DNA of 64,000 nucleotides from an uncultured Lachnospiraceae bacterium (lineage in GTDB: Bacteria; Bacillota; Clostridia; Lachnospirales; Lachnospiraceae): positions 1 through 64,000 of the forward strand of contig CATOJY010000001.1 of the NCBI GenBank assembly GCA_951800685.1, in the 5' to 3' direction. The translations under genes and the position numbers were made by a program. The stretch's first letter is position 1. Every line of letters starts with the position of its first letter. A model generated the notes under the pieces. That model was not told where the DNA came from, did not search any database, and saw only the letters and a list, made by a program, of their open reading frames with translations. This document shows, piece by piece, positions 40,298 through 64,000 of this stretch.

Positions 40298-40344
40298 TCT
40301 TATATGCAAGATGCGTTACAGAAGAAAAAGTTTTTGAAAAATGC

Positions 40345-40371
40345 TTATTTTTTCTGGAAATGCGGCGATAA
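40345..40371 (+). promoter_or_regulatory. Candidate sigma-28 promoter, flagellin 3
   Basis: TTAT-N15-GGCGATAA. Confidence 0.6.
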
Positions 40372-40465
40372 ATGTAATGTAAGATAGGTATATGGGGAAT
40401 CCGCATAATAGATCTAAAAAATTTATTTGCCAAGTGTATAAGGGCTTATATAAACGGTGGCAGAG

Positions 40466-40500
40466 ACAGGGAAGTTTCTGTAGATATTTTCAGACAAGGA
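40466..40500 (+). promoter_or_regulatory. Two CsrA-like sites in flagellin 3 leader
   Basis: ACAGGGA (40466-40472) and ACAAGGA (40494-40500). Confidence 0.6.
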
Positions 40501-40510
40501 GGTATACTTT

Positions 40511-44165: not shown

Positions 44166-44338
44166 TATTGTTCAGTGAAAGTATTTGAATGGCTGCATCA
44201 TTCTGCCATATTGGTAAAAGGGGTGGAAAGCGTTAAGTTTTATATCGTTACGGTCGATAATATAAGAAAAGGGTTTAGGGGCAGACTGGAGAAAATGCTC
44301 CGGATTTCAGGCTGTATGGCAGCGGAACGGAGGATATC

Positions 44339-45115: not shown

Positions 45116-45119
45116 GAAC

Positions 45120-45842: not shown

Positions 45843-45852
45843 AGGTGCAGAG

Positions 45853-46911
45853 ATGTATAGAGATAAATATATAGCCAGTACATATCGTATCAAAGACCAT
45901 ACGGACAGAAGAGGATATTTGCGTTTGGATATGAATGAGAATCCCGAAGGGCTGCCGGAAGATTTTGTGCGCGAGACAGTGAAGAAAATTACGCCGGAGT
46001 TTCTGGCGTCTTATCCGCAGAAGGATAATCTGCTTGGGCTTATTGCCGGGCGGGAAGGGGTAGACGTACAGAATGTGACGCTGACGAATGGTTCCGATGA
46101 GGGCATGCGCCTGGTCTTTGAAACATTTACCCATGCAGGGGGGCGGGTTTTAACAGTTACACCTACGTTTGAGATGTATCAGGTATATGCAAGTATGTTT
46201 GGCGTTGAGTTGGATACGGTTCTTTTTAAAGAAGATTTTACGATAGAGACAGAGGAGCTGCTTGGGGCAATTAAGGAAGATACGAATCTGGTGGTTCTTC
46301 TGAATCCAAACAGCCCGATTGGGACAGAGTTTACGGAAGAGGAATTTGAACGGATTGTGGCGAAGGCGGAAGCTGTAGGGGCTGTGGTTCTGGTGGATGA
46401 GGCATATTATCCTTTTGGAGTGGAATCGAAGGTGGAGCATTGCAGGAAATATCCCCATGTGATGGTGATGCGGACCTTTTCGAAATGGTGTTCCCTGGCA
46501 GCTTTACGGGTGGGATATCTGATTGGAAGTGAAGAATGTATTCATCTGATAGAAAATGCACAGTCTACTTACAATGTGAATTCGGTGGGGATTTTGTTTG
46601 CCGAAGAACTGCTGAAACGGGAGGACATTCTGGACAGTTTGAGGCAGTCGATGGAAGCGGGAAGGGACTATCTGGTTTCTCAATTGGAAAGCGCCGGGTA
46701 TCGCTACTATGCATCAAGAGGAAACTATATTCTGATTAAGCCTAAGAGAGAACCGCAGGTTATAGCAGAAGCGTTGAAAAAGGAATACATTTTGATAAAG
46801 ACATACCGCAAAGGGATGCTGGGCGGCTGGGTCAGGATTACTCTGGGCAGCAGGAAGGTTATGGAGAAGTTCTGGAAAAGCTTTTGCAGGATGGAGGAAT
46901 GTGACTCGTGA
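45853..46911 (+). CDS. PLP-dependent HisC/CobD-like aminotransferase or decarboxylase
   Basis: LRLDMNENPEGLP; VVLLNPNSPIGTEF; RTFSKWCSLAALRVGYLIG. Confidence 0.85.
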   Translation: MYRDKYIASTYRIKDHTDRRGYLRLDMNENPEGLPEDFVRETVKKITPEFLASYPQKDNLLGLIAGREGVDVQNVTLTNGSDEGMRLVFETFTHAGGRVLTVTPTFEMYQVYASMFGVELDTVLFKEDFTIETEELLGAIKEDTNLVVLLNPNSPIGTEFTEEEFERIVAKAEAVGAVVLVDEAYYPFGVESKVEHCRKYPHVMVMRTFSKWCSLAALRVGYLIGSEECIHLIENAQSTYNVNSVGILFAEELLKREDILDSLRQSMEAGRDYLVSQLESAGYRYYASRGNYILIKPKREPQVIAEALKKEYILIKTYRKGMLGGWVRITLGSRKVMEKFWKSFCRMEECDS

Positions 46912-48152
46912 CAGGGCAAAAACCGCTTGTATCCATTGTGATACCTGTTTATAATGGAGCGAATTATTTAAAAGAAGCGATTGAAAGCGCTTTAGGGCAG
47001 ACTTATGAGAACTGTGAAGTTCTTGTTATCAATGACGGTTCCAGTGATCAGGGGGAAACGGAACGGGAAGCGCTGAAGTTCGGAGACAGAATCCGGTATT
47101 TCAAAAAGGAAAACGGCGGAGTTGCATCCGCTTTAAATTTCGGCATCCGCAAAATGCAGGGAGAGTATTTTTCATGGCTTTCCCACGACGATGTATACAG
47201 TCCTCAGAAAATAGAAAAGCAGTTGGAGGCGGTTTTACAGTCGGGAAATCCGGCGGCTCTGGTGCAGGCTGAATATGAGTTTTACAATGAGGATACGGGT
47301 TCAAGGACGCCGACGCGTTTTTTGAAGCATTATAGACCGGAACAGATTACAAATTCCTGCTTTTCCGTGCTGCAGCTCCAGAGCCATGCGTGCAGTGCGC
47401 TGATACATAAGAGCCATTTTGAGAGGGCGGGGCTGTTTGATGAAAGCCTGAAAACGATACAGGATATTGATATGTGGTTCCGGATTTTTAGGGGACAGAA
47501 ATCTTTGTTCCTGGCGGATATCCTTCATATGGTAAGGGAACACCGGGAGGCAGGCTCCAACACGATTTCCTGTTATCATGAAGAAACGCGGAAGGAATAC
47601 GCAAAGCTTGTCCGGCAGATGCCGAATGAGGAAATCCGGCAGGTGTTTGGAAATGCGGGAGCGTTTTTATGCCGTATGGCCGGGTTTGTGAAGAGTTACG
47701 GCGGCGGAGACGAACTGAGAGAAATAGAGAACAGGCTATGGAATATGGAGAAAGATTCTGAGGAAGGCCAGGGCTTGAAGGAATTTTATGATAAGCTGTC
47801 TGATTTTTCCCAGAACAAGGCGAAAAGGATTGTGATATTCGGCTCCGGGCAGTATGGAATCCGGGTGAAATATGATTTGGAGAGCCGTTTGGTGGCGCCG
47901 GAATATTTTATGGATAATAACCCAAAGAAACAGGGAACGGTCATTGATGGGATTCCCTGTAAATCGAAAGAGGAATTGTTGGCGCAGAAGGGAGATACGC
48001 TGGTGGTAATCGCGATGAGGAATTGTGAGGAAGCGGTGAAGGAACTGGAAGCAGAAGGGATACCTTATTATGTGACAAGACAGGAGCTTGATCCCATCCT
48101 GCTGAATACGCCGCCGGCAGTCTCCAGAAAGGAAGAGTGGCTGGGAAAATGA
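46908..48152 (+). CDS. GT2 glycosyltransferase with C-terminal Rossmann-like domain
   Basis: VSIVIPVYNGANYLKEAIESALGQTYENCEVLVINDGSSD; C-terminal IVIFGSGQYGIRVKYDLESRLVAPEYFMDNNPKKQG. Confidence 0.88.
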   Translation: MTGQKPLVSIVIPVYNGANYLKEAIESALGQTYENCEVLVINDGSSDQGETEREALKFGDRIRYFKKENGGVASALNFGIRKMQGEYFSWLSHDDVYSPQKIEKQLEAVLQSGNPAALVQAEYEFYNEDTGSRTPTRFLKHYRPEQITNSCFSVLQLQSHACSALIHKSHFERAGLFDESLKTIQDIDMWFRIFRGQKSLFLADILHMVREHREAGSNTISCYHEETRKEYAKLVRQMPNEEIRQVFGNAGAFLCRMAGFVKSYGGGDELREIENRLWNMEKDSEEGQGLKEFYDKLSDFSQNKAKRIVIFGSGQYGIRVKYDLESRLVAPEYFMDNNPKKQGTVIDGIPCKSKEELLAQKGDTLVVIAMRNCEEAVKELEAEGIPYYVTRQELDPILLNTPPAVSRKEEWLGK

Positions 48153-48865
48153 ATGTAGCGATTATTATTGCAGCGGGACAGGGGCACAGGATGCGGCAGG
48201 AAATTCCGAAACAGTTTATCAATGTGTATGATAAGCCTGTAGTGATTTATACACTGGAGAGCTTTCAGCGGCATCCGGATATAGACGCTATCGAAGTGGT
48301 GTGCCTGGACGGCTGGCAGGATTTGCTGAGGGCTTATGCGAAGCAGTTTGGCATTACGAAATTAAAATGGATTGTCAGCGGAGGGAGCACGGCGCAGGAA
48401 TCCATCCGGAACGGCGTGTTTGCATTGAAAGAAGAATGCGAGGATGATGATATTGTTATTATCCATGACGGAATCCGGCCTTTGGTGGATGAGAGCATTT
48501 TGTCTGATGTAATTCTGAAATGCCGGGAATATGGGAACGCGGTAACATCTCTCCCATATAATGAGCAGATTTTTGTGATAAAGGATGAAAAATGTACCAG
48601 CCAGTATATTCCTCGGGAAACGCTGCGGCGGGTATCGACTCCCCAGGCTTACATGTATGCAAAACTGGTATGGGCTTATACAAAAGCGTTTAAAGAAGAA
48701 ATCGGTATCTACGGTTCTTCTTATACGAATACCATGATGGTGGATTTGGGCGAGGTGCTGTATTTTGCTGCAGGTTCGGATAAAAATATTAAGCTGACGA
48801 CAAAGGATGATTTGGAGTTGTTTAAAGGATATCTGCGGACGGAAAAGGACGAGTGGTTAAAGTAG
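48149..48865 (+). CDS. IspD/TarI-family cytidylyltransferase
   Basis: MNVAIIIAAGQGHRMRQEIPKQFINVYDKPVVIYTLESFQ; VIIHDGIRPLV; STPQAY. Confidence 0.87.
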   Translation: MNVAIIIAAGQGHRMRQEIPKQFINVYDKPVVIYTLESFQRHPDIDAIEVVCLDGWQDLLRAYAKQFGITKLKWIVSGGSTAQESIRNGVFALKEECEDDDIVIIHDGIRPLVDESILSDVILKCREYGNAVTSLPYNEQIFVIKDEKCTSQYIPRETLRRVSTPQAYMYAKLVWAYTKAFKEEIGIYGSSYTNTMMVDLGEVLYFAAGSDKNIKLTTKDDLELFKGYLRTEKDEWLK

Positions 48866-48884
48866 AAGATTAGGAGACAGGCGT

Positions 48885-50045
48885 ATGAAGTGGAAGAACA
48901 GAGGGCATGAATTTGACGGCGTGTATGATAACATACAGAAGCTGGATAAATACTATTTGTTTGGTGCAGGAGAGTATGGGGAACAGATTTGCGGGCTTTT
49001 AGAGAAAGAGCTTATGATATTGGGATTTCTTGATAATGACAGCAGAAAGCAGCATACGCTGTATTGCGGAAAAATGATATACTCTTTAGATGAAGTGGAA
49101 GAAAAGCTGGACGAAACTACAGGAATCATCGTGACAGTATCGCCGTATACAAGGCTGCCGGTTATGCAGCAGCTGATGCAAAAAGGGCTGGCGCAGGACA
49201 AACAGGTCTTTACCATGGAAATGTTCATGATGGTATATGCCGCGTACAAGAACGGCAAAGTATACATTCCGTCAATATCTTTCCTGCCCAGTACGAGGTG
49301 CAATCTGCGCTGTGAGGCGTGCCTGAATTTCACTCCGTATATGAAGCACTTTGATGAACGTCCGTGGGAGCAGATTCAGGCTGATGTTGATACATTTTTT
49401 TCATGTATTGATTATATTATGCTTTTTCATATCAGCGGCGGGGAGCCAATGCTGTATCCGCATATGAAGAAGCTGGTGGAGTACATTGATACGAATTACC
49501 GGAAGAAAATCCATATTTTGCGGACAGTGACAAATGGGACGGTGCTTCCCAAGCCGGAACTTTTGGATGCGCTGGCAGAGCACAATGTAGAAGTGACGGT
49601 GGATGATTATCGGGAAGCAGTGCCGAACAGTGTGGAAACATTTTCTAAATTGCTGGAGCGTCTGGAGAAACATCAGGTAAAATATGAAATTAATAAAGTG
49701 GACGAGTGGATTGATTTGGCGCCGCTTACAACCCATCATGAGGACTGGAGCGAGCAGCGGCTGCAGAATCAGTTTGAGAGCTGTCATGTGCCGTGGCAGG
49801 AGTTGAGGGACGGAAAGCTTTTTAGCTGTAATTATGCGAGTTATGCGATGGTAGCAGGGCTGGCAAAGACAGATGAGACTGAGTATTTTGATTTGAGGAG
49901 CTATACGCCGGAGAAACGAAAGGAACTGATTGAATTCCGTATGGGGTACAATGTGAAAGGGTATGTGGAATTTTGTAAGAATTGCAGTGGATATATAGAT
50001 ATCAATCCGAACAAAGTAGAGCCGGCGAAGCAGGCAGCGAGGTGA
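48885..50045 (+). CDS. Radical SAM protein with N-terminal Rossmann-like domain (rSAM-1)
   Basis: YLFGAGEYGEQICGLLEKELMILGFLDND; CNLRCEACLNFTP (CxxxCxxC); C-terminal CxxC cysteine cluster. Confidence 0.87.
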   Translation: MKWKNRGHEFDGVYDNIQKLDKYYLFGAGEYGEQICGLLEKELMILGFLDNDSRKQHTLYCGKMIYSLDEVEEKLDETTGIIVTVSPYTRLPVMQQLMQKGLAQDKQVFTMEMFMMVYAAYKNGKVYIPSISFLPSTRCNLRCEACLNFTPYMKHFDERPWEQIQADVDTFFSCIDYIMLFHISGGEPMLYPHMKKLVEYIDTNYRKKIHILRTVTNGTVLPKPELLDALAEHNVEVTVDDYREAVPNSVETFSKLLERLEKHQVKYEINKVDEWIDLAPLTTHHEDWSEQRLQNQFESCHVPWQELRDGKLFSCNYASYAMVAGLAKTDETEYFDLRSYTPEKRKELIEFRMGYNVKGYVEFCKNCSGYIDINPNKVEPAKQAAR

Positions 50046-50107
50046 GGAACCCGGTTTACAGAGCCTGGAAACAGAGTATATAGAAAACAGTGGTAAGGAG
50101 ATGCGTG

Positions 50108-50947
50108 ATGAGAAAAGCTCAGGAATATAAATTATCTTCGGAAGAACTGAGAAAGTTACAGCGTATTGAGCTGGAAATGCTGATTGAGGTGGACAGAATC
50201 TGCCGGAAGCACAATATTCAGTATTCGCTGGATGGCGGTACGCTGCTGGGCGCAGTCCGCCACAAAGGATTTATCCCATGGGATGATGATATTGATGTGA
50301 TTATGCTCAGAAAAGAGTATGCAAAGTTCCGAAGGGTATGTAAGAAAGAGCTGGATACGGCGCGTTTTTTTCTTCAAGATTATAAGAGTGATCCTTATTA
50401 CCGTTGGGGCTGGGCAAAGATACGGCGGGAGAATACGGAACATGTGCGGCTGGGGCAGGAATTCCTGAAACAGAAAACAGGGATTTTTATTGACATTTTT
50501 GTGGCGGATAATGTGCCGGATCGTTTTCTTCTGCGGCGGCTGCACCATTTCCTGTGCTTTTTTATTCGAAAAGTTTTGTATGCGCCATTGGGAGTACGGC
50601 AGGCAGGAAAGCGCAGGGAAAGAGCAGTGTACCGTATATTGAGCAGGATACCGAGGGACAGCGCATTTGCGCTGCGGAATCGGCTGGCGTGGGCGTGCAA
50701 CAGGAGGGATACCGAGCTTATCAGCCACTATACGCTGGAGTATCCGAAAAGCTGCCGGTACGGCCTTCCGCGGCGGTGTTTTGAAGAGTTTATTGAGCTG
50801 GAGTTTGAGGGATATAGGTTTCAGGCTTTTAAAGATTATGAGGTCTATCTGCGGGGGCACTATGGAGATTACAGGAAGCTGCCTCCGGTGGAAGAGAGAG
50901 TGCCGCATTCAAAGATTTCGAAGATTGATATGAGTGGAGTGGAGTGA
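50108..50947 (+). CDS. LicD family phosphotransferase-like protein
   Basis: YSLDGGTLLGAVRHKGFIPWDDDIDVIMLR; start at 50108 with AAGGAG upstream. Confidence 0.9.
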   Translation: MRKAQEYKLSSEELRKLQRIELEMLIEVDRICRKHNIQYSLDGGTLLGAVRHKGFIPWDDDIDVIMLRKEYAKFRRVCKKELDTARFFLQDYKSDPYYRWGWAKIRRENTEHVRLGQEFLKQKTGIFIDIFVADNVPDRFLLRRLHHFLCFFIRKVLYAPLGVRQAGKRRERAVYRILSRIPRDSAFALRNRLAWACNRRDTELISHYTLEYPKSCRYGLPRRCFEEFIELEFEGYRFQAFKDYEVYLRGHYGDYRKLPPVEERVPHSKISKIDMSGVE

Positions 50948-50948
50948 C

Positions 50949-52139
50949 ATGAAATGGACAAAGCAGGGCAGGGAACTTGCCGGGACAGAAGAGGCTATCG
51001 CGAAAGAATATGCCAATAAAGAAATATATATATATGGCAGCGGGATTATTGGGGAAAGATTTTTTTATGCAATACAGAGACTTACGGATTGGACGGTAAA
51101 GGCATTTATTGATAAATATAAAGCAGGAGATATATGCCAGGGTCTGGATGTGTTGAGTCTGGAGGAGTTCTCAAGAAGAGCAAATGCTGATTGCCTGGTG
51201 TTAATTGCCTTACATGACGATATTGGACAAGAGGTAAAAGAGGGACTTAGTGTTTTTTTGGAGAATAAGCGCAGTATCTGTAAAACTTATAATGAATTTA
51301 TGCGGCATGATTTTCCGCTCCTGATGCTTCATCAATATCAAAAAGTTGTTGTGAATTCCCTTTCCTGTATCGTGACAGAGAGATGTACGCTGAGGTGTGA
51401 AAAATGTGCGATTATGCTTCCATATTTCAAAAATGTGAAGAAATATGAGGCGGCAAAAATAAAAGAAGAGATTGATCTGGCATTTAGCAAAATAGATTTC
51501 GTGGGAGACTTTACTTTTACAGGCGGAGAGCCGTTATTAAACCAGGAGTTGGAAGAGGTTCTTGGGTATATAGCAGAAAACTATCTGGAACAGATAGGAA
51601 GTTTAAAGATTATTACCAATGGTATGATAGAGCCAGGAAAAAGGCTATTAAACTGTATGAAGAAATATGGTATGTATGTGGAAATCAGTGATTATACGGC
51701 TACGAACCCTGAACTGAAACAGAGAGTCATGGAAAATTATGAAAAATACAGGGAGAACGGGATTAGGACATATTTGTTAAGTTCTGCGCAATGGGTAGAT
51801 TTTGGGTTTGAGGCGCTGCATCATGAGGAAGATACAGAAAGCAGCATGGAAGCCTTTTTTGATTACTGCCATACAAATTGCCGTGGGTATATCGATGGAA
51901 AAATATGGTACTGCATTAATGCAAGATTTGCGGAAAAAGCGCTGGAGTTTGCATATGATGAAAGCAATATGCTGGAGCTTGGGAAGCTTGGGAATGGGAT
52001 AGAAGAAAAGGCAAAAATTGTGGAATTTGATTTGGGATATAATGCCAGAGGTTATTTAACAATGTGCCGGAGGTGCAATGGCGGATGTGATATCAATACA
52101 CATTATATAGAGGTGGGAAGACAGTGCAGAAATCTTTAG
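50949..52139 (+). CDS. Radical SAM protein with N-terminal Rossmann-like domain (rSAM-2)
   Basis: IYIYGSGIIGERFFYAI; CTLRCEKCAIMLP; MCRRCNGGCDIN. Confidence 0.86.
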   Translation: MKWTKQGRELAGTEEAIAKEYANKEIYIYGSGIIGERFFYAIQRLTDWTVKAFIDKYKAGDICQGLDVLSLEEFSRRANADCLVLIALHDDIGQEVKEGLSVFLENKRSICKTYNEFMRHDFPLLMLHQYQKVVVNSLSCIVTERCTLRCEKCAIMLPYFKNVKKYEAAKIKEEIDLAFSKIDFVGDFTFTGGEPLLNQELEEVLGYIAENYLEQIGSLKIITNGMIEPGKRLLNCMKKYGMYVEISDYTATNPELKQRVMENYEKYRENGIRTYLLSSAQWVDFGFEALHHEEDTESSMEAFFDYCHTNCRGYIDGKIWYCINARFAEKALEFAYDESNMLELGKLGNGIEEKAKIVEFDLGYNARGYLTMCRRCNGGCDINTHYIEVGRQCRNL

Positions 52140-53332
52140 TATCTATTATCATTCCGGTTTATAATGGAGCAAATTATTTGAGAGAGGCGATTGACAGTGC
52201 GTTAAATCAGACATATCAGAACTGTGAGGTTATCGTTGTGAATGATGGTTCAGACGATAATGGAAAAACGGAAGAGATTGCATTGTCATACGGAAGCAGA
52301 ATCAGGTATTTCAGGAAAGAGAATGGGGGAGTGGCAACGGCATTAAATGCAGGCATAAGAGAAATGCAGGGAGAGTATTTTTCCTGGCTTTCTCATGATG
52401 ACGTTTTCTATCCCCGTAAGATTGAAGAGCAGGTTAAATGTGTGAAAGAAAACAATGTATGGATGACAGCATGTTCTTACGATATCTTTACGGATTCGGG
52501 AAGAAGGGTTGCGGTTCCGTTATTACAATTTTACAAAGAGGGAAATTTAGAGAAAAATGTATTTTCTGTAATACAATCGCTTATACAATTTGGCGGTGTG
52601 CTTCTCCACGAATGTATTTTTGAAAGATATGGGACATTCCGTGAAGATTTGCGCACAACGCAAGATTATGAGTTCCTGTTTAGGATTTTAAGAAAGGAAA
52701 AATGTAAATTCTCTAATGAACGCCTTTATGGCATCAGATACCATGCGGAGCAGGGAAGCAATACCATAAGAAGTGTAGACATTGAACGGGATGAAATGTA
52801 CCGTATGTTTTTAGATGAACTTACACATCAGGAGAGAGTGGAGTTATACGGAAGTGATTATAACTTTTTTTATCAGATGCTGCTGAGGATTTTTCCGATA
52901 CCAGGCATGGAGAAAAGTTATTCTGCCTGTTTGCAGGGAATGCGCTTAAACACATGCATTGCGGGTGAGATAGAAGAAAAAATAGAAACGCCGATTTGGA
53001 TTTATGGGGCGGGCGCTTATGGAAAAAGGCTTTTATTTGATTTGCGCTGCCGCGGCTTTGCTGTTGAAGGGTTTCTTGATGGAAACAAGAAGCTGCATGG
53101 CAAGAAAATAGATGGGATTATATGTCGGGGATTAGGGGAACAGGGAATGTTTCGGGGCAGAATTATCATTGCCTCTTTATATAGAGAAGAGATTGCGCAG
53201 GAATTAAGAAGAGCCGGAATTAGTAATTATGTATTTAAAGAGGATTTGGATAAGATCTTTATGGATGTTTCACCCCAAAATAAAATTGTAGAAAAGATAA
53301 TTGGCAGGTATCAGGAAAATGGATGGAGATAA
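52124..53332 (+). CDS. GT2 glycosyltransferase with C-terminal Rossmann-like domain
   Basis: VSIIIPVYNGANYLREAIDSALNQTYQNCEVIVVNDGS; C-terminal IWIYGAGAYGKRLLFDLRCRGFAVEGFLDGNKK. Confidence 0.88.
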   Translation: MQKSLVSIIIPVYNGANYLREAIDSALNQTYQNCEVIVVNDGSDDNGKTEEIALSYGSRIRYFRKENGGVATALNAGIREMQGEYFSWLSHDDVFYPRKIEEQVKCVKENNVWMTACSYDIFTDSGRRVAVPLLQFYKEGNLEKNVFSVIQSLIQFGGVLLHECIFERYGTFREDLRTTQDYEFLFRILRKEKCKFSNERLYGIRYHAEQGSNTIRSVDIERDEMYRMFLDELTHQERVELYGSDYNFFYQMLLRIFPIPGMEKSYSACLQGMRLNTCIAGEIEEKIETPIWIYGAGAYGKRLLFDLRCRGFAVEGFLDGNKKLHGKKIDGIICRGLGEQGMFRGRIIIASLYREEIAQELRRAGISNYVFKEDLDKIFMDVSPQNKIVEKIIGRYQENGWR

Positions 53333-53798
53333 AAAGCAGGTATGTATCTATTGCATGGGAGAATATGGGATACAGACATATTTCAAGTTAAAAAAATATG
53401 GAATTGCAGTTGGATGTTTTGGAGATACGGATAAAAGTAAACAAGGTTATGCGTTGGAAGGGTTATTCTGTAAATCTTATGAAGAGGTACTGGAACTGGA
53501 TAAAAGGGAAACTGTTATTATTGTTAGTATGAAAAATTCAGCGGCATTGGTAAATCAGTTTCGCCAGGAGGGATTTGAGAACGTATATAGCAGAGAGGAG
53601 CTATACGCTTTATTGGATAAAAAGGAGCCGTGTGTGAGGAATGATTTGCTGGATGAAACGGAAATTGTGGATTTGAAGGACAATCTTGAAAAAGTTTTTT
53701 GCGGATATCCTTACAAAAAGACGGAGAGGCGTAAAAGCGCGGAGATTCTTTTAGAAGATTGTGTAAAGCGCCAGGGGAGGAGAAATCTAGGCAAATGA
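53319..53798 (+). CDS. Stand-alone Rossmann-like domain protein
   Basis: VCIYCMGEYGIQTYFKLKKYGIAVGCFGDTDKSKQGYALEGLFCKSYEEV; same pattern as the flanking fused domains. Confidence 0.75.
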   Translation: MDGDKKQVCIYCMGEYGIQTYFKLKKYGIAVGCFGDTDKSKQGYALEGLFCKSYEEVLELDKRETVIIVSMKNSAALVNQFRQEGFENVYSREELYALLDKKEPCVRNDLLDETEIVDLKDNLEKVFCGYPYKKTERRKSAEILLEDCVKRQGRRNLGK

Positions 53799-55015
53799 AA
53801 GTCGTAGAGGTGAATTATTGGGATTTGGTGGGAAGGAACTTTAATGGATATGATTTGCATTTGAAGCTGCGCGAAAATGGAATAGATGCAAAACAGATTG
53901 TGATGGATAAAAGAAGCGACGCGGATAGTGTTATCTGTTTAAAGAATGACTGGATGTTTCATGAGCAGGTTGCACATTATGAGAAAGAACATTCGATTAG
54001 CAATCTTTTGATGCCTTACATAACAGAGTTAAAGAGAATAGAGGAATTTCAAAATGCGGATATTAAACATTATCACATTCTGCATAATAGAATGTTTTCC
54101 TTGTATGATTATCCGGATTTGATGAAGGCGAATAGTGTATGGACGATACATGATCCCTGGATTGTTACGGGAAATTGTATACATCCGATGACATGTGAAA
54201 AATGGAAAACCGGCTGTGGAAATTGTGTGAGGCTGGATGAAATATATTATGAGATGGAGCAGGATAATACAAATTTTATGTGGGAGGTTAAAAGAAAAGT
54301 ATTTCGGGAAATGAATCCCCACGTTGTGGTTGCTTCAGAATTTATGAAGAGATATATGAAGGAAAGTCCGTTGACTGAACATTTTGATAAGATTCATGTG
54401 ATACCCTTTGGGGTTGATATCAGTTCGTATCATGACAGAGAAGAATTAGCAGATGAAAACCATATTGTTATTGGATTCAGGGCAGATAACGCGCCGGTGA
54501 AAGGATGCGAATACATATATGAAGCATTAAGACAGATATCAGATAAGGACAGAATATTCCTTATGACAGTAGGCGCGGGGGTAATCCCGGAGGATATTCG
54601 GAAAATGTATAAAGTACAGGAGCATTCCTGGATAAATGATAAACAGGGAATGATTGATTTTCAGGAAGCCTGTGATATATTTATTATGCCGTCGCTGGCA
54701 GAAAGTTTTGGCCTTATGGCGATTGAAGCTATGGCAGCCGGAAACGCAGTTATTTGCTTTAAGGGGACGGTATTGGAAGATATTACAAATGCTCCAATAT
54801 GTGGAAGTTCTGTAGAGTATAAATCAAGTTCTGCATTGGCGTATGAAATTGAGAGATTGTCCCGGAATCCGAGGGAAATCCGGCAAAAAGGGAGGATGGG
54901 ACGGCAGCTGGTGGAACAGAAATATCAATTTGACACGTATGTAAAAAGGCATCAGGAGCTGTATGAGAGTATTTTAAAAGAGAGCCTGGACGGAAAAGGG
55001 AAAAGATATGAATGA
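53795..55015 (+). CDS. GT1/GT4-type glycosyltransferase
   Basis: IHVIPFGVDISSY; CDIFIMPSLAESFGLMAIEAMAAGNAVICF. Confidence 0.9.
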   Translation: MKVVEVNYWDLVGRNFNGYDLHLKLRENGIDAKQIVMDKRSDADSVICLKNDWMFHEQVAHYEKEHSISNLLMPYITELKRIEEFQNADIKHYHILHNRMFSLYDYPDLMKANSVWTIHDPWIVTGNCIHPMTCEKWKTGCGNCVRLDEIYYEMEQDNTNFMWEVKRKVFREMNPHVVVASEFMKRYMKESPLTEHFDKIHVIPFGVDISSYHDREELADENHIVIGFRADNAPVKGCEYIYEALRQISDKDRIFLMTVGAGVIPEDIRKMYKVQEHSWINDKQGMIDFQEACDIFIMPSLAESFGLMAIEAMAAGNAVICFKGTVLEDITNAPICGSSVEYKSSSALAYEIERLSRNPREIRQKGRMGRQLVEQKYQFDTYVKRHQELYESILKESLDGKGKRYE

Positions 55016-56231
55016 CAAAAAGATTTCTATTATTATTCCGGTTTATAACGGAGCAAATTATTTAAGAAATGCCATAGACAGCGCACTGAATCAGACATAT
55101 GACAATTGTGAGGTGCTCGTGATCAATGACGGTTCTTCGGATGATGGAGCGACGGAAAGAATAGCGGCGGAGTATGGAGAACGTATCCGTTATTTTTATA
55201 AAGAAAATGGAGGCGTGGCTTCTGCATTGAACTTAGGCATCCGTGAGATGGACGGGGACTATTTTGCCTGGTGTTCCCATGATGACATGTTTCTGCCAGA
55301 TAAATGTGAAAAGCAGATACAGGCGTTGGAGGAATGCGGTGATGATCAGCGGATTGTGCTCAGTGAATACAGGCTTTTATTTGTGGAAAAGAATTTGTTG
55401 GATGAAGCGGTGAAGCCAAGAAAGAAGCTGAAACGCAGGATGCGTCAGGATGGGCTTGCGGCTGTGTTAGCGCAAATGGTTCATGGATGTGATGCATTAA
55501 TACATAAATGCCATTTTGAAAGGTGCGGTGTGTTTGACGAGACGCTGCGCACAACGCAGGATTATGATTTGTGGTTTCGGATATTGCGGGGACAGAAAAT
55601 CCTGTATTTGGAGGAGCCTCTGGTTATTTCCAGAATTCATGCAGAGCAGGGGAGCAGGACGATACCAAGCCATATCAGGGAGTGTAACGAGCTGTGGATT
55701 CGTTTTGTGAATCAGGTGACGGACAGAGAGATGTATAAGTTGTATGGGAGTCCCTATGAGTTTTATTGGGAGATGCTTGATTTTGCAAGAAAAACCCCTT
55801 ATCGGGCTTTTGAAGAGCATGTGACGGGAAAAATCCTGGCATTGGAGGAGCCTGCTGATTTAGAAAGCAGGATATTGGAATTGAAAAAGAAGTTTGGAAC
55901 AGGGAAGCTGTTTATGTTTGGGGCTGGCAGAAATGGAAGAAACCTGAACCTGCAGCTTATGCTCAGGGGGATTTTGATAGAGGGATTTATTGATAATGCA
56001 GAGGAAAAGCAAAATCAGATTTTGGATGGAAAAAAGATAGAAAGTTTAGAATGTGCCATGAAGCATCCGGGAAAGAAATGCATTCTTGTTTCGCCGGATG
56101 CCCAGGAGGCTGTCATCCGGCAGCTGGAAGAAGCACATGTGACAGATTATCTCACAAAAGCTGAGATAGAGGAGTATCTGGATATGGCGCCGCCACTGAA
56201 AGAAAAACTGGCGTTGCTGGAAAGGGGCTAA
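55008..56231 (+). CDS. GT2 glycosyltransferase with C-terminal Rossmann-like domain
   Basis: ISIIIPVYNGANYLRNAIDSALNQTYDNCEVLVINDGSSDD; C-terminal LFMFGAGRNGRNLNLQLMLRGILIEGFIDN. Confidence 0.88.
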   Translation: MNDKKISIIIPVYNGANYLRNAIDSALNQTYDNCEVLVINDGSSDDGATERIAAEYGERIRYFYKENGGVASALNLGIREMDGDYFAWCSHDDMFLPDKCEKQIQALEECGDDQRIVLSEYRLLFVEKNLLDEAVKPRKKLKRRMRQDGLAAVLAQMVHGCDALIHKCHFERCGVFDETLRTTQDYDLWFRILRGQKILYLEEPLVISRIHAEQGSRTIPSHIRECNELWIRFVNQVTDREMYKLYGSPYEFYWEMLDFARKTPYRAFEEHVTGKILALEEPADLESRILELKKKFGTGKLFMFGAGRNGRNLNLQLMLRGILIEGFIDNAEEKQNQILDGKKIESLECAMKHPGKKCILVSPDAQEAVIRQLEEAHVTDYLTKAEIEEYLDMAPPLKEKLALLERG

Positions 56232-56234
56232 TGT

Positions 56235-58751
56235 ATGAGAACACAAATCAGGCAGCAGTTACTGGAGATGACGGATTCTATGCTGGAAGCGGCGAAAACT
56301 CTGGACGAGCTGTACAGAAAAAAGGAATATGCACAGTTTAAAGAGCTTCTGGGTATTGTGCAGGAGGCAGCGCTTACTGTTGGAAATAAAATCGAGGAAA
56401 CAGAAGGGGAAGGCACGGCAGCGGTCAGCCAGTTGGAGAACCTGTGTGAGCTTGTGTGGGGGCTTTATGAGAATGTGGAAACTGAGAATCCCCAGAAACG
56501 CATGAAGCTGATGAATAAGCAGCTGCTTCAGATACGGAACAGCATAAAATATGATATACCTGTTACGTATGAGGTCGTGTTTCTGCCGTACAAGGCGTCT
56601 ATGTGGGATTCCCTGGAAAGTATATGGATGGCGGCAAAAGAAGCGCCTGACTGTAACTGCAGGGTGATTCCCATTCCGTATTTTGACAGGAAACCGGATG
56701 GAACCCCAAGGAACTGGTACGATGAAAGCGGGGAATTTCCGGGATATGTGCCAATTACGAAATATACAGAATATCATTTGGAAACGGAAAGGCCGGACAT
56801 TATTTTTATTCATAATCCGTATGACGATCAGAACACAGTGACAAGTATCCATCCGGACTATTATAGCCGGAAAATACGGGAATACACATCGCTCCTGGTG
56901 TATGTTCCTTACTTTGTGGCGAATAATGATTCAGTGAATCCGCTGCAGTGTCTGACAAGCGGCGTATTGTATGCTCATAAGACAATCCTTCAGTCTGACA
57001 AACTCAGGGATGTTTTTATCAGGGGATTAAGGGAAGCTCTGGATATGAGCGAAGAGAGGTTCCGGAACAGCGGGTTGGAAGATAGATACCTGGCGTTAGG
57101 TTCTCCCAAATTAGACAAAATGATTTCAGGAATTTACGATGCTGACGGAATACCGGAATCATGGCAAAGGAAAATCGGTTCGCCGAGAAAGAAAGTGATT
57201 CTGTATAATTCGACAATAACAGAATTGCTTAATTATACAGAGGGTGTGATGAAGAAGCTGGAGGACTTTATAGAACTGTTTCCGAGAAGAGACGATATGG
57301 TATTGCTGTGGCGTCCGCATCCTTTGAGCATCAGCACCATAGAAAGTGTACGCCCTCACTATAAGAAGCGGTATATGGATATCGTAGAACAGTTTCAGAT
57401 GCTTCCTAATGTGATTTATGATAACAGCCAGGACAGCCAGCGGGCGCTCCTGCTGGCAGACGCATATATTGGGGATGAAACCAGTTCCATGCTGAAATCT
57501 TTTGGCGTTACCGGAAAACCAATCCTGATTACAGACTATAATAATACGCGTATGGGAACAATCAGCTGTGCAGTTCAGGAAGATATTTTATGGATGTTTC
57601 ATCATAAATATAACGCGGTGTTTAAATTGCATCTGCAGACAAAACAGATAGAGTTTGCCGGGGCGCTGGAAGGCGCAGAAAGCAAAAACTATATGTTTAA
57701 GAATGCGGTGGCATATGGGCAGAAAATTTTCTTTATTCCGTATTTTTGTGATTGCATATTGGTGGTTGACACCAAAAACGGTAATATGGAAAGAGTTGTA
57801 TTGGAAGAGAAAGAACTAAATAACCAGTATATTCCGATACTGCATGGAAAAAAGATATATCTGTTTCCGATTTTATTCAGCAGCCGGAGATTTGTGATTG
57901 ATGCAGAAGATAATACGGTAGAAGCAGCAGAATGTCCTTTGTCAAAGGAATTAGGCTATAAAAATGAAGAGCCGGTTTTTGTTGGGGGCCGGTTGTTTAA
58001 AAACCATATTTTTTTCGGGTGTAATGATAAGCCGTGGCTGGCGGAATATGCGCCGGAAACGGATAGCTGGGAAGTCCATAGATATAAAGGAACAGCAGCG
58101 TTCTATAGCATCACAGCGGATCATGAAAATATATGGATTATGTCAAAGAACCCGCTGATGCTTTTGAAATGGAACAAAGAAGAAGGATTTTCTGTAGTGT
58201 CAGAAGATTTTGCCGCGTATAATATTTTGGACGAGATTAATCCTGCATTTTCTGAAATTGCATATATAGGGGACAGTGTGTGGTTTATCCCATTCCAGGC
58301 GGATCATTTTATAAAAATAGATAGAAAGACAGGAAAGCATGCGGAGGTTCCGGTTGGGACGCAGGAGCTTTTAGGGAATGGAAAGGAAGGCGGATTTTTT
58401 GGCGGCCGATGTCATGATGAAGATTATGAATATCTATTTTCAAGAGTGAGCGATAAAATTGTGTGCATTGATAAGAAGAGAAATCAGGCAGCAAGTATTG
58501 AGATTGTTCCGTTTACTGAAAACCAGAAAAAAGAGATTGTGGAATCTGTGATGCAGGCTTCCGTGAATCCTGTCTATCGGGAGTCTTACTGCAGTTTGAA
58601 GGATTTTCTGGATATTGTGGCACAGGGGAAAGATATGCACATAGATAAAAGAAAAGGTTTTTTTAGAGGAAATGTAAATTTTGCAGATGGCACGGCAGGA
58701 AAAGAAATCTGGAAGCATATGAAAGAAGAACTGGAAAGGAGAAATTTCTAA
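56235..58751 (+). CDS. TagF-like (CDP-glycerol glycerophosphotransferase-type) GT-B protein fused to a C-terminal beta-propeller-like region
   Basis: VILYNSTITELLNY...MVLLWRPHPLSISTIES...LLADAYIGDETSSMLKSFGVTGKPILITDY; repeated blades GQKIFFIPYFCDCILVVDTKNG / DSVWFIPFQADHFIKIDRKTGK. Confidence 0.75.
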   Translation: MRTQIRQQLLEMTDSMLEAAKTLDELYRKKEYAQFKELLGIVQEAALTVGNKIEETEGEGTAAVSQLENLCELVWGLYENVETENPQKRMKLMNKQLLQIRNSIKYDIPVTYEVVFLPYKASMWDSLESIWMAAKEAPDCNCRVIPIPYFDRKPDGTPRNWYDESGEFPGYVPITKYTEYHLETERPDIIFIHNPYDDQNTVTSIHPDYYSRKIREYTSLLVYVPYFVANNDSVNPLQCLTSGVLYAHKTILQSDKLRDVFIRGLREALDMSEERFRNSGLEDRYLALGSPKLDKMISGIYDADGIPESWQRKIGSPRKKVILYNSTITELLNYTEGVMKKLEDFIELFPRRDDMVLLWRPHPLSISTIESVRPHYKKRYMDIVEQFQMLPNVIYDNSQDSQRALLLADAYIGDETSSMLKSFGVTGKPILITDYNNTRMGTISCAVQEDILWMFHHKYNAVFKLHLQTKQIEFAGALEGAESKNYMFKNAVAYGQKIFFIPYFCDCILVVDTKNGNMERVVLEEKELNNQYIPILHGKKIYLFPILFSSRRFVIDAEDNTVEAAECPLSKELGYKNEEPVFVGGRLFKNHIFFGCNDKPWLAEYAPETDSWEVHRYKGTAAFYSITADHENIWIMSKNPLMLLKWNKEEGFSVVSEDFAAYNILDEINPAFSEIAYIGDSVWFIPFQADHFIKIDRKTGKHAEVPVGTQELLGNGKEGGFFGGRCHDEDYEYLFSRVSDKIVCIDKKRNQAASIEIVPFTENQKKEIVESVMQASVNPVYRESYCSLKDFLDIVAQGKDMHIDKRKGFFRGNVNFADGTAGKEIWKHMKEELERRNF

Positions 58752-58752
58752 T

Positions 58753-59943
58753 ATGAAATGGACAAAAAAGGGACATGAACTTGAAGAACAATGGGAGGCG
58801 TTAAAAGGCGGATGTTTTTATATTTATGGCGCGGGAGACTATGGAGCCAGGATGAGCAGGACTCTTTCAAAATTGGGGATAGAGTTTGCGTTTGTGGATG
58901 GAAATTATGACAAACAGCAGAACGGCTATTTAGGGAAAAAAGTAATTTCTCCGGTAGAATTAGTAGAAAGGCCCGAAAAGAAATTGATTATTTTGGCCGC
59001 AATGGAAAACACGATGCTGGAAATGCGCCGGATATTGGAAAAGCATGGGATGGAAAAGAACAGGGATTTCTGGTATATGGAGGAATTTAAACAGTCAGTG
59101 CTTCCGGTTTATGCATGGTATGCGCTGGGGAAGATTTATATGCCTAGCGTCGGTTTTTTATCAACGACCATCTGTAATCTGAACTGTGACGGATGTCTGA
59201 ATTTTACAGCTTACAATAAGAATCAGAAGAATGAGAATGTAGAGGATTTAAAAAAGACGCTTGCAGACTATTTTAAAAATGTTGATGTGGTGGATTTCTT
59301 TTCTTATACAGGGGGAGAACCGTTTCTTCATCCTGAGGCGGATGAAATCCTGGAGTATATCGGGAGCCATTACAGGAATCAGATTGTTTCTTTGGGAATT
59401 TCAACTAACTGCACGATTGTTCCGAAAGACAGGGTATGCGAAATATGCGCCAGGTATGGATTCTGTTTTCTGATTGACGATTATTCAAAGTATGTAGAAC
59501 GTTCTAAAAAGATCTTGCCTGAGATAGAAGAGAAATTGCAGAAGTATGGCGTAGAATATGCGGTAAATAGAGGGGATGAAACATATTGGATCGACTTGGA
59601 ACCTCTTAAAACAGATAATTATGGAATGAGTGAAGAAGAGTTAATTGCCTATAGGGACAGGTGTGCAGTGCCATATAGGGAATTGTACCATAGCAGGTTA
59701 TATGCATGTAACTATGCGAATTTTGGTATAAAAGCCGGATTGGAAACAGAAGAGCCAAACGATTCGTTTGATCTGAGCGGCGGTGAAGTAGAAGATAAAG
59801 TAGTTTTCGTGGAGTTTATTATGGGTTATACAGAAAAAGGGTATGTGAATTTCTGCAAGCACTGTGCGGGCTTTCTGCCCATCAATCCGTATAAGAAACC
59901 TGTAGGGAAACAATTGCCAAGGGGAGAAGAGAAAAATGTATAA
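58753..59943 (+). CDS. Radical SAM protein with N-terminal Rossmann-like domain (rSAM-3)
   Basis: FYIYGAGDYGARMSRTLSKLGIEFAFVDGN; CNLNCDGCLNFTAYN; FCKHCAGFLPINPYK. Confidence 0.87.
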   Translation: MKWTKKGHELEEQWEALKGGCFYIYGAGDYGARMSRTLSKLGIEFAFVDGNYDKQQNGYLGKKVISPVELVERPEKKLIILAAMENTMLEMRRILEKHGMEKNRDFWYMEEFKQSVLPVYAWYALGKIYMPSVGFLSTTICNLNCDGCLNFTAYNKNQKNENVEDLKKTLADYFKNVDVVDFFSYTGGEPFLHPEADEILEYIGSHYRNQIVSLGISTNCTIVPKDRVCEICARYGFCFLIDDYSKYVERSKKILPEIEEKLQKYGVEYAVNRGDETYWIDLEPLKTDNYGMSEEELIAYRDRCAVPYRELYHSRLYACNYANFGIKAGLETEEPNDSFDLSGGEVEDKVVFVEFIMGYTEKGYVNFCKHCAGFLPINPYKKPVGKQLPRGEEKNV

Positions 59944-60898
59944 ACCCAGGATATCCGTCGTAATACCGGTATATAACGGAGAAAATTATATGAAAGAAGC
60001 GATTGACAGCGCGCTAAACCAGACGTATGAAAACGTAGAAGTTCTTGTGGTGGATGATGGTTCAGTGGATGGAACAAAGGAAATCATGGACGCTTATGGA
60101 GATCGGATTATCGGGCTTCATAAGAAAAACGGGGGAGTAGCCACGGCGCTGAATATGGGAATTGCGCATATGTCAGGAGAGTATTTTGCATGGCTTTCCC
60201 ATGACGATCTGATGAAACCGGATGCGTGTGAAATTTATGTGAGGCATCTGCAGGGCGAGGAAAAAGAGACGCTCGTATATGGAAATTACGATATTCTGGA
60301 TAAAGAGGGAAGGGTGTACAATTGGACAAATTTTGAGGCGCTCTATACGCAGGAAGTCATGGAGATGTCTGTGTATCCTGTTATTTTAGGATGCGTCAAT
60401 GGGTGCGCGCTTTTAGTACATAGGAGTCATTTTGACAGAGTAGGATATTTTAATGAGGAGCTAAAGATTACGCAGGATAATGAGATGTGGTTCCGAATTT
60501 TCCGGGATTCAAAGATTAAATTCTGCGGGGAAACCGTTTCGTCCAAACGCTACCACCCACAACAGGACAGCCAGACAAAAGATATATATCCTGATGAAGA
60601 TGCATTTGTCTTTGCGTGCCTGCGTCAATTAAATCTGGTGGAATGCGCCTGTTTTGGCGGAAATGTATTATCATTTTTTAGAAAAATGAAAGCGAGAGTG
60701 TCACCGGAGAAGCATCCGCTGACAACGAAATTCTGTGGGGAAATGATTTGTAAAGCGCAAAATGGAAGTTTGTATAGCGAGTTGACAGCAGAAGAACTGA
60801 CAAGAATGCTTATGGCTGCTGAGCAAAAAAATGACGAATTGGAGAAAGAGAATAGAAGGCTTCAGGGGAAATTAAGAGAGTTATATATGAAATTTTAA
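59936..60898 (+). CDS. GT2 glycosyltransferase (C-terminal Rossmann-like domain absent)
   Basis: ISVVIPVYNGENYMKEAIDSALNQTYENVEVLVVDDGSVDGTKEI; coiled-coil C-terminus. Confidence 0.88.
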   Translation: MYKPRISVVIPVYNGENYMKEAIDSALNQTYENVEVLVVDDGSVDGTKEIMDAYGDRIIGLHKKNGGVATALNMGIAHMSGEYFAWLSHDDLMKPDACEIYVRHLQGEEKETLVYGNYDILDKEGRVYNWTNFEALYTQEVMEMSVYPVILGCVNGCALLVHRSHFDRVGYFNEELKITQDNEMWFRIFRDSKIKFCGETVSSKRYHPQQDSQTKDIYPDEDAFVFACLRQLNLVECACFGGNVLSFFRKMKARVSPEKHPLTTKFCGEMICKAQNGSLYSELTAEELTRMLMAAEQKNDELEKENRRLQGKLRELYMKF

Positions 60899-60946
60899 AA
60901 TGTTATAACAAAGATAACTGAATGTGTCATGTTAGGAGAATAATGG

Positions 60947-62293
60947 ATGGAGAGGAAAAATTTAGAAATAAGATTAGAAAAGTTTAATGATAAATATAAA
61001 AATCAAACAATATGGCATTGTAATATTCTTGGACAATGTATTGATTTTGATTATGATGAAATTATTTTTTGCTGTTCTTCAACAGTCTATCCTAAAACAC
61101 CTGTAATATGTGATGTTGATAGGGGGGGGGTAGAGGACAATTTTCATAAAGAGAGTTATGTTGGGAAATTGCTGGATGTGATGGAAGAAAATCAGAATGC
61201 AGACGGTCCCTGTCGTGGATGCAAGCACTTGAAACAGATCATATTTGAAGGCCTGGAATATGATGATGTAAAATTAAAAAATATAGTACACAACAATTTT
61301 CGTGGCTGTAACTCCAGATGCATTTACTGTGACCAGAATGTAGCGAAAATTAATGAAAAGTATGAGTCTTTAAAGATTATCAAACGGTTGCTAGAAGAGG
61401 GATGTATAGATACCCATTTCAATATTGATTTTGGGGGAGGTGAACCTACGCTGCTGCCTAATTTGAAAGAGTACCTGGAATTTGGTTATGCACATGGATG
61501 TCGGCAGCTTTTAAACACGAGTGGAATTTTGTTTCACGAATCAATTTATGAAGGTCTGAAACAGGGGAATTTGACAGTTCAGATCAGTCCGGATGCAGGA
61601 ACAGCGGAAACATACAAAAAAATAAAGAGGCAGAACGGTTTTGAACAAGTTTGGAGGAACATCGGAAAATACTGTGATTATGCGGATAATGTACTGATAA
61701 AATATATTGTGTTCTCATATAACTCATCGCATCAGGAAATAGATGCTTTTATTACGCAGTGTAAGCGTCATGGTGTAAAGGACATTAGGGTTTCGGCAGA
61801 AACAAGGACAGCGTGGAAAGATACTGAAAAAACAGGTAAAGTATGGGAGTTTGGAGAAGCTGAGATAGACGGATGTGCATATTTGATGTATCAGTGCTGC
61901 GTGAATGATTTTCTTTTTAGATTTATGGACGGTAACGTGTCTGAGGAGAAAAGAAAGAAGGTAGGCAGAAGATTTTTTGAGTATTACTTTAAGTCGTACA
62001 TAAAAGAAAATCAAAAAGAAAATAATGTGTTTGTCTATGGCATGGGAAAAAATGGAGTCCGTCTGTATCATCAAATGAAGGAACTTGGCATTGAAATAAG
62101 GAGCTTTGTTGATTGCGATGTCAAGAAGCAGAAAACAGGGTATGACGGGAAAAACTGCCTGTCACCAGAGGAAATTAACGGGGAAAAGGATTGGATCATT
62201 ATATCAACAGAGAGCTATCATGAAATATGGGGAAAATTGAAACAGCAAGGTGTGAAAAAAATATTTGCAAGTTTTGCAGGATTGCAAACTTAA
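60947..62293 (+). CDS. Radical SAM protein with C-terminal Rossmann-like domain (rSAM-4), carries a G9 tract
   Basis: NFRGCNSRCIYCDQNVAKI; FGGGEPTLLPNLKEYLEFG; C-terminal VFVYGMGKNGVRLYHQMKELGIEIRSFVDCDVKKQKTGYDG. Confidence 0.85.
   Translation: MERKNLEIRLEKFNDKYKNQTIWHCNILGQCIDFDYDEIIFCCSSTVYPKTPVICDVDRGGVEDNFHKESYVGKLLDVMEENQNADGPCRGCKHLKQIIFEGLEYDDVKLKNIVHNNFRGCNSRCIYCDQNVAKINEKYESLKIIKRLLEEGCIDTHFNIDFGGGEPTLLPNLKEYLEFGYAHGCRQLLNTSGILFHESIYEGLKQGNLTVQISPDAGTAETYKKIKRQNGFEQVWRNIGKYCDYADNVLIKYIVFSYNSSHQEIDAFITQCKRHGVKDIRVSAETRTAWKDTEKTGKVWEFGEAEIDGCAYLMYQCCVNDFLFRFMDGNVSEEKRKKVGRRFFEYYFKSYIKENQKENNVFVYGMGKNGVRLYHQMKELGIEIRSFVDCDVKKQKTGYDGKNCLSPEEINGEKDWIIISTESYHEIWGKLKQQGVKKIFASFAGLQT
61122..61130 (+). 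repeat. Homopolymeric G9 tract inside coding sequence
   Basis: gttgat-a-ggggggggg-tagagg, encodes DRGGVE. Confidence 0.9.
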
Positions 62294-62318
62294 GAAAGTA
62301 AGAAAGAAGGAGAAGTTT

Positions 62319-63347
62319 ATGGGACGGACAGATATTTTTGCAGGAAAGACATTGTTGATTACGGGAGGAACGGGTTCTTTTGGAAATGCGGTATTGAAAC
62401 GTTTTTTGAATACAGAAATCAAAGAGATTCGCATTTTTTCCCGCGATGAAAAGAAACAGGATGATATGCGCAGATTTTATAACAACAGCAAGATTAAATA
62501 TTATATTGGCGATGTGCGCCAGCTTCGGAGCGTACAGGAGGCGATGCGGGGCGTGGATTATGTGTTCCATGCTGCGGCGTTAAAACAAGTTCCTTCCTGT
62601 GAGTTTTTCCCGATGGAAGCAGTCAAGACAAATATCATGGGAACAGATAATGTACTTACCGCAGCAATTGCAGAAGGGGTAAAAAAGGTGGTCTGCCTGT
62701 CTACAGATAAAGCAGCCTATCCGATTAATGCTATGGGTATCAGCAAAGCCATGATGGAAAGGGTGTTTGTGGCAAAATCAAGGACAACGGATAAGACTGT
62801 AATCTGCGGGACACGGTATGGGAATGTGATGTGTTCCAGAGGATCAGTCATCCCTCTGTTTATTGAACAGCTGAAAGCCGGGAAGCCTTTGACGATTACA
62901 GAGCCGAATATGACGAGATTCCTGATGAGCCTGGAGGAAGCGGTAGACCTGGTGCTTTTCGCGTTTAAGAACGGACAGGCAGGCGATATCATGGTGCAGA
63001 AGGCTCCGGCGTGCACGATTGATACGCTGGCGCACGCCGTTTCGGATATTTTTGCAGAAGGGCAGGCGGATATCCATTATATCGGAATTCGTCATGGCGA
63101 GAAGATGTATGAGACGCTGCTGACGCGGGAAGAGTATATCCATGCGGAGGATATGGGGCAGTTTTTCCGGGTGCCTGCGGATAACAGGGAGCTGAACTAC
63201 GAGCAGTATTTTGAGAAGGGTAAAGTAGATGTGCGGGAACTGAAGGAATTTAATTCCAGCAATACGCAGATTCTGGACAGGGATCAGGTAAAAGAACGCC
63301 TTCTGGAGCTGCAGTATGTACAGGGAGAGTTGGAGACAGCAAAATAG
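62319..63347 (+). CDS. UDP-GlcNAc 4,6-dehydratase/5-epimerase family (FnlA/CapE-like)
   Basis: LLITGGTGSFGNAVLKRFL; RIFSRDEKKQDDMRRFYNNSKIKYYIGDVRQ; HAAALKQVPSCEFFPMEAVKTNI. Confidence 0.9.
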   Translation: MGRTDIFAGKTLLITGGTGSFGNAVLKRFLNTEIKEIRIFSRDEKKQDDMRRFYNNSKIKYYIGDVRQLRSVQEAMRGVDYVFHAAALKQVPSCEFFPMEAVKTNIMGTDNVLTAAIAEGVKKVVCLSTDKAAYPINAMGISKAMMERVFVAKSRTTDKTVICGTRYGNVMCSRGSVIPLFIEQLKAGKPLTITEPNMTRFLMSLEEAVDLVLFAFKNGQAGDIMVQKAPACTIDTLAHAVSDIFAEGQADIHYIGIRHGEKMYETLLTREEYIHAEDMGQFFRVPADNRELNYEQYFEKGKVDVRELKEFNSSNTQILDRDQVKERLLELQYVQGELETAK

Positions 63348-63366
63348 CCCGGGAGGAGAAAAGCAG

Positions 63367-64000
63367 ATGAAAGTTATCATATTTGGGGTAAATGGCATGG
63401 CGGGGCATATGGCCGCTCTGTATCTGGCTGAACGCGGGCATCAGGTAACGGGATTTGCAAGGCGTCCCCAAAATCTTGGCGAAGGCATCGTCTGTATAGA
63501 GGGAGATGCTTTGAATCAGGATTCGGTCAGGAGTGTATTGGCAGAAGGAACGTATGATGCGGCGGTCAATTGTATCGGAATCCTGAATAGGGCTGTGGAT
63601 GCTAAGTTGTCAGAAGGGATTTATTTAAACAGTGTATTTCCGCATTTCCTGGCGGAATGTGCAGAGGATGCGGGCGCCAGGGTAATACATATCAGTACGG
63701 ACTGTGTATTCAGCGGAAGTAAAGGGCAGTATACGGAGAAAAGTACACCGGATGCGGAGTCCTACTATGGAAGGTCAAAGGCGTTGGGAGAGTTGACAGA
63801 CGACAGGAATCTGACGCTTCGTACATCTATTGTCGGGCCGGAGTTGAAAGCGGACGGAATTGGGCTGTTTCACTGGTTTATGGGGCAGGATGGGGAGATT
63901 GACGGCTTTACGAAGGCAATCTGGTCCGGTGTGACAACGCTGGAACTGGCAAAGTCCATAGAAGCTGCTATGCGCCAGAACCTGACGGGGCTTTATCATC
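63367..64000 (+). CDS. RmlD-like NAD(P)-dependent sugar reductase, truncated by the window end
   Basis: own translation MKVIIFGVNGMAGHMAALYLAERGHQVTGFARRP...RVIHISTDCVFSGSKGQYTEKSTPDAESYYGRSKALGE; not in the ORF track because it runs off the end. Confidence 0.85.
   Translation, partial: MKVIIFGVNGMAGHMAALYLAERGHQVTGFARRPQNLGEGIVCIEGDALNQDSVRSVLAEGTYDAAVNCIGILNRAVDAKLSEGIYLNSVFPHFLAECAEDAGARVIHISTDCVFSGSKGQYTEKSTPDAESYYGRSKALGELTDDRNLTLRTSIVGPELKADGIGLFHWFMGQDGEIDGFTKAIWSGVTTLELAKSIEAAMRQNLTGLYH

What the first reader, a model, noticed from the sequence alone, without database searches (positions are those of the whole stretch)
61122..61130. G9 homopolymer inside a radical SAM gene: potential phase-variable switch
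Nine consecutive G lie about 59 codons into a 448-codon ORF, and I noticed no comparable G tract elsewhere (longest other runs seen were G6). Poly-G tracts in surface-glycan and flagellar genes of Campylobacter and Helicobacter mediate slipped-strand ON/OFF switching (established). In this assembly the tract is in the ON length (DRGGVE in frame).
Basis: partly seen in the sequence, partly recalled or inferred. Interest (0 to 1): 0.74.

Follow-up and report, generated by a model that had tools for sequence, protein, structure and literature searches.

The report
Possible G-run switch in flagellar-glycan gene
A run of nine Gs sits early in a radical SAM enzyme gene beside the flagellin genes of a gut bacterium, where losing or gaining one G would switch the gene off; this resembles Campylobacter's sugar-coat switches, but nothing yet shows that it actually switches.

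Summary
G9 lies at 61122-61130, codons 59-62 of an intact 448-codon radical SAM gene, and is the only G run longer than six in the window. G6, G9 and G12 keep the frame; G7, G8, G10 and G11 stop at codons 62-68, before the radical SAM core. The gene lies in a sugar-modification island just downstream of the flagellins. An independent isolate assembly (Hominisplanchenecus murintestinalis NM72_1-8) also has G9, so it is not an assembly error. But the two genomes share a 4.4-kb block without one difference there, so equal length says nothing about stability.

Phase variation is plausible, not shown. Against: the species has only five G runs of nine or more, near chance, and intact mutS/mutL. For: in other Clostridia, G9-G11 tracts split similar genes (radical SAM, acyltransferase, FkbM, a DUF4910/DUF2172 gene) between two frames, apparently OFF alleles; one lies near the second-closest homologue of this gene.

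The window's contig is misbinned: its first 143 kb are H. murintestinalis, while the rest of the bin is another genus carrying about 20 long G tracts. That repertoire is the more interesting lead.

The parts
61122..61130 (+). G9 homopolymer, codons 59-62 (AGG GGG GGG GTA) of the radical SAM gene
   Evidence: frame consequences of other lengths
60947..62293 (+). radical SAM gene, 448 codons, open (ON) at G9
   Evidence: Pfam PF04055 at residues 118-250, E 5.1e-18; over no NCBIfam cut-off
61298..61696 (+). radical SAM core domain with C-x3-C-x2-C (CNSRCIYC), wholly downstream of the tract
   Evidence: motif read
61943..62254 (+). C-terminal module (about residues 333-436) shared with other proteins of the island, residues read as a nucleotide-binding-like fold
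   Evidence: matches to window 47745-48062, 58804-58998, 53331-53591
59936..60898 (+). family 2 glycosyltransferase, gene directly upstream
   Evidence: PF00535
62319..63347 (+). FnlA/PseB-like UDP-N-acetylglucosamine 4,6-dehydratase, gene directly downstream (below both curated cut-offs)
38265..41317 (+). three flagellin genes upstream of the sugar island
   Evidence: translations; family assignment by reading the sequence
41449..60898 (+). sugar-modification island: glycosyltransferases, nucleotidyltransferases and three further radical SAM proteins
60596..64000 (.). block identical to H. murintestinalis NM72_1-8 (continues to about 65000 on the contig); zero differences, flanks differ

Best explanation
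The G9 is most likely a translational contingency tract. Slippage during replication would occasionally change its length by one. G8 stops translation at codon 62 and G10 at codon 68, before the radical SAM core, so part of the population would lack this enzyme and carry an altered glycan, probably on flagellin. Shown here: the tract, its position, the frame consequences, the enzyme superfamily and the island. Inferred: that the length changes often enough to matter, that the product acts on flagellin sugars, and that selection maintains the tract.
For: Both neighbouring lengths are null, G6/G9/G12 are on. The gene lies in a sugar island downstream of the flagellins. The synonymous-codon null predicts 0.38 runs of G9 or more in 143 kb, and there are no G7 or G8. 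Nine G is within the range that switches in C. jejuni: Cj1295 of the flagellin glycosylation locus is off at 8 and on at 9 (PMC3068675), and tracts of eight or more vary in strain NCTC 11168 (PMC6321876). In other Lachnospiraceae, single domains are split at G9-G11 tracts: an acyltransferase in L256, a methyltransferase and a DUF4910/DUF2172 gene in L241, an FkbM methyltransferase in L243 near the second-closest homologue of this gene.
Against: No length variation was seen: two genomes, both G9, but in a recently shared identical block. The species has only five G runs of nine or more, with one to two expected, and the other four are not in convincing switch positions. mutS and mutL are intact about 9 kb downstream, which should lower slippage. 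In Lachnospiraceae generally, G9 runs are mixed between long reading frames and sites in none.
Confidence: 0.5

Rival explanations
1. The G9 is a chance run of AGG GGG GGG G in a weakly constrained loop. The gene is expressed constitutively, and the tract is at most a mild mutational hot spot that selection and mismatch repair hold at G9.
For: Five runs of nine or more against one to two expected in the genome. The tract falls in a loop that is not conserved in the distant homologues. MutS and MutL are present. Both strains have G9.
Against: The absence of G7 and G8 with one G9 in the 143-kb block is unlike a simple tail, and the one convincing coding tract of the species falls in a flagellin-linked sugar island, the classic site.
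Confidence: 0.38
2. The tract is a hot spot for one-way loss: it occasionally inactivates the gene in some strains, without the frequent reversion that defines phase variation.
For: A comparable case is the 8C-to-7C change in mga of group A streptococci, where spontaneous reversion was not seen (PMC11868660). The gene is accessory: no orthologue was found outside the species.
Against: No off allele of this gene has been seen at all.
Confidence: 0.09
3. The G9 is an assembly or sequencing artefact.
For: Homopolymers are error-prone, and the window's contig is misbinned.
Against: An independent isolate assembly, whose contig name gives 294-fold coverage, has the same G9 and the same intact frame.
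Confidence: 0.03

Closest known systems
Campylobacter jejuni Cj1295, a poly-G gene of the flagellin glycosylation locus (PMC3068675)
   Same: G tract in the 5' part of a gene in a flagellin-linked sugar locus; on at 9 G, off at 8 G.
   Different: Cj1295 is an aminopeptidase-like protein, not radical SAM. Its length variation and its effect on flagellin are proven. C. jejuni lacks MutS/MutL (own knowledge), the species here has both.
PhasomeIt poly-G/C phase-variable genes of Campylobacter (PMC6321876)
   Same: Meets the length cut-off (seven or more G or C) inside a reading frame.
   Different: Campylobacter genomes carry many such tracts, this species essentially one in a chromosomal gene. 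The authors themselves note that a tract over the cut-off may mutate too slowly to count.
mga 8C-to-7C change in group A streptococci (cited in PMC11868660)
   Same: Short G/C homopolymer in a Gram-positive gene, frame lost by one base.
   Different: A regulator gene, and the review declines to class it as phase variation because spontaneous reversion was not seen.

Membership tests
Slipped-strand (simple sequence repeat) phase-variable gene | Uninterrupted repeat above the hypermutable length inside the reading frame | tested here: met
   G9 in frame; cut-off of seven in PMC6321876
Slipped-strand (simple sequence repeat) phase-variable gene | One-unit changes switch the product off | tested here: met
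   G7, G8, G10, G11 stop at codons 62-68 (in-silico)
Slipped-strand (simple sequence repeat) phase-variable gene | Tract length differs between isolates or within a culture | tested here: inconclusive
   G9 in both genomes, but within a 4.4-kb block with zero differences
Slipped-strand (simple sequence repeat) phase-variable gene | High-frequency, reversible switching | not testable with these tools
   needs reads or colonies
Flagellin glycosylation contingency gene (Cj1295-like role) | Lies in a sugar-modification locus next to flagellin genes | tested here: met
Flagellin glycosylation contingency gene (Cj1295-like role) | Product changes the flagellin glycan | not testable with these tools
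   inference from location only
Radical SAM superfamily | PF04055 match with CxxxCxxC motif | tested here: met
   E 5.1e-18 over the cut-off; CNSRCIYC in the sequence
Any named radical SAM equivalog in NCBIfam | Score over the curated cut-off | tested here: not met
   best 44.9 bits against a cut-off of 265

The most novel reading that the evidence does not exclude
Poly-G contingency loci are a widespread, largely undescribed way of diversifying surface glycans and lipoproteins in gut Clostridia that keep their mismatch repair genes. The window's gene is one instance, the bin's other genus a heavily equipped one, and another Lachnospiraceae genome has such a tract in a DUF4910/DUF2172 gene, which by my reading is the protein type of Campylobacter's Cj1295.
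Probability: 0.5. Interest if true: 0.65.

Novelty: new member of a known kind. Interest (0 to 1): 0.42.

Why it matters
If it switches, one species-specific enzyme would make part of the population display a different flagellar sugar coat, which bears on phage adsorption, antibody recognition and flagellin sensing in the gut. The broader pattern would extend poly-G contingency from Campylobacter, Helicobacter and Neisseria to common gut Clostridia, where switches have mostly been looked for as DNA inversions (own knowledge).

Tried and rejected
1. I first took the 20 other G9+ tracts of the assembly as evidence for many switches in the window's organism. Rejected once the contig proved to be H. 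murintestinalis and the rest of the bin another genus.
2. Tract-length comparison with the isolate genome was uninformative because of the zero-difference block.
3. Twenty tract flanks searched as one concatenated DNA query in the isolate genome gave nothing (no positive control, so weak). A 2-kb query for one of them also gave nothing there. Both are consistent with these loci not belonging to the species.
4. Close orthologues were sought in the bin's genus, the isolate's genus (two genomes only), 396 family genomes and the 85,000-species contig set. Only distant homologues without a tract were found.
5. Loss of MutS as the reason for the other genus's tracts was rejected: 76 of 78 genomes have MutS1 over the cut-off.
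6. A one-per-genome sample of G9+ tracts from Lachnospiraceae was mixed, with many in no long frame, so a G9 alone proves nothing.
7. Literature searches for poly-G phase variation in Lachnospiraceae or Clostridia found no relevant paper in the held library. It holds open-licence papers only.
8. A structure prediction was not run: without an alignment of usable relatives it would be weak, and it would not decide whether the tract varies.

Full report
The tract. The G9 is at 61122-61130 within the ORF 60947-62293 (448 aa), codons 59-62, reading DVDRGGVED. It is the only G run above six in the window. Changing its length in silico gives a full frame with G6, G9 and G12, and stops at codons 62-68 with G7, G8, G10 and G11. 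The radical SAM core (residues 118-250) lies wholly downstream, so the off forms should be null. One caveat: in-frame alternative starts exist at codons 75-79, and whether they are used is unknown.

Surroundings. The window runs from flagellar structural genes through three flagellins (38265-41317) into an island of glycosyltransferases, nucleotidyltransferases and four radical SAM proteins including this one. The next gene downstream resembles FnlA/PseB UDP-GlcNAc dehydratases, below both cut-offs. The tract gene reaches no NCBIfam cut-off and only weakly matches solved enzymes. Its C-terminal module recurs in other island proteins. A role in flagellin glycan modification is inference from location.

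Whose DNA is it? A contig search found the same gene in Hominisplanchenecus murintestinalis NM72_1-8. The first 143 kb of the window's contig align to one contig of that isolate at 98.7%. By contrast, about 470 kb from other contigs of the bin and about 900 kb from the isolate share nothing better than about 81%. MutS on the window's contig is 70-74% identical to MutS of ten genomes from the bin's genus, which are 84-98% identical to each other. The window's contig is therefore misbinned, and the bin's other G tracts belong to a different organism. This corrects what a simple genome-wide count would suggest. One loose end: the bin holds no second full-length MutS1, so its majority organism's own copy is probably among the missing sequence.

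Is one G9 remarkable in this species? The isolate has five G runs of nine or more. Of the other four, three lie on two contigs of unusual composition and one is in no long frame. A 1.13-Mb sample predicts one to two by extrapolation. Codon resampling predicts 0.38 in the 143-kb block, together with 5.4 G7 or G8 runs of which none exist. The tract is suggestive, not compelling.

Length variation. Both genomes have G9. They share 60596 to about 65000 without a single difference, although other island segments differ by up to about 20% per 500 bases. The block is recently shared and cannot show stability or variability. Homologues in the family are at best about 30% identical; the residues around the tract are an unconserved loop, and no long G run is there.

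What related genomes show. Of 298 Lachnospiraceae genomes, 184 have at least one G9 run. A one-per-genome sample is mixed between long reading frames and sites in none. In several cases one protein is split at the tract between two frames, as expected for an off allele: an acyltransferase at G10 (L256), a methyltransferase at G9 and a DUF4910/DUF2172 gene at G10 in a single-contig genome (L241), and an FkbM methyltransferase at G11 (L243) about 1.5 kb from the second-closest homologue of the window's gene. Calling these off alleles rests on single assemblies.

The bin's other organism. Run lengths over the whole bin are bimodal: 7 G7, 3 G8, then 15 G9, 3 G10, 2 G11 and 1 G12, one of the G9 being the window's own. 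The decline from G4 to G6 (1212, 219, 30 in 456 kb) predicts about one run of nine or more. Tracts lie in radical SAM genes, acyl- and acetyltransferases, FkbM and WbqC genes, solute-binding lipoproteins and AraC regulators, and six genes appear split. Many relatives in that genus also have numerous G9 runs, although the genus has MutS1.

Comparison with known systems. The arrangement works like Cj1295 of C. jejuni, where 8 G is off and 9 G on in a flagellin glycosylation gene (PMC3068675), and it meets the length cut-off of the PhasomeIt survey (PMC6321876). The defining property, length variation, remains unshown. I call it a candidate contingency locus at about even odds, not a demonstrated phase-variable gene.

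Noticed in passing
whole bin G000 versus its contig C1 (the window's contig): The contig is misbinned: C1 1-143153 is 98.7% identical to H. murintestinalis NM72_1-8, while the rest of the bin is another genus.
   Followed up: yes
L010-L027 (other contigs of the bin): About 20 G9-G12 tracts in a bimodal length distribution, in glycan genes, lipoproteins and AraC regulators, six genes apparently split between frames; some tracts lie just before start codons (cas1 in L023, a DUF975 gene in L025).
   Followed up: partly
L241 9260 and 15364 (G474, single-contig genome): Two G tracts in one glycan locus, a methyltransferase (G9) and a DUF4910/DUF2172 gene (G10), both split between frames as if off.
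   Followed up: partly
G000 contig C1 at 143153: The match to the isolate ends inside what reads as a small acid-soluble spore protein gene, and the following 167 kb has a different composition: possibly a large integrated element or an assembly join.
   Followed up: no
L026 query 799-863 (upstream of a split solute-binding lipoprotein gene): A stretch of about 65 bases upstream of the start codon matches several places in genome G013 at 87-91%: perhaps a shared regulatory element of sugar-binding protein genes.
   Followed up: no
contig C1 71008-75698, about 7 kb past the window: mutS and mutL lie close to the flagellin sugar island.
   Followed up: partly
window 38265-40193: Two adjacent flagellin genes encode what read as identical 269-aa proteins, with a third, diverged copy next to them.
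   Followed up: no
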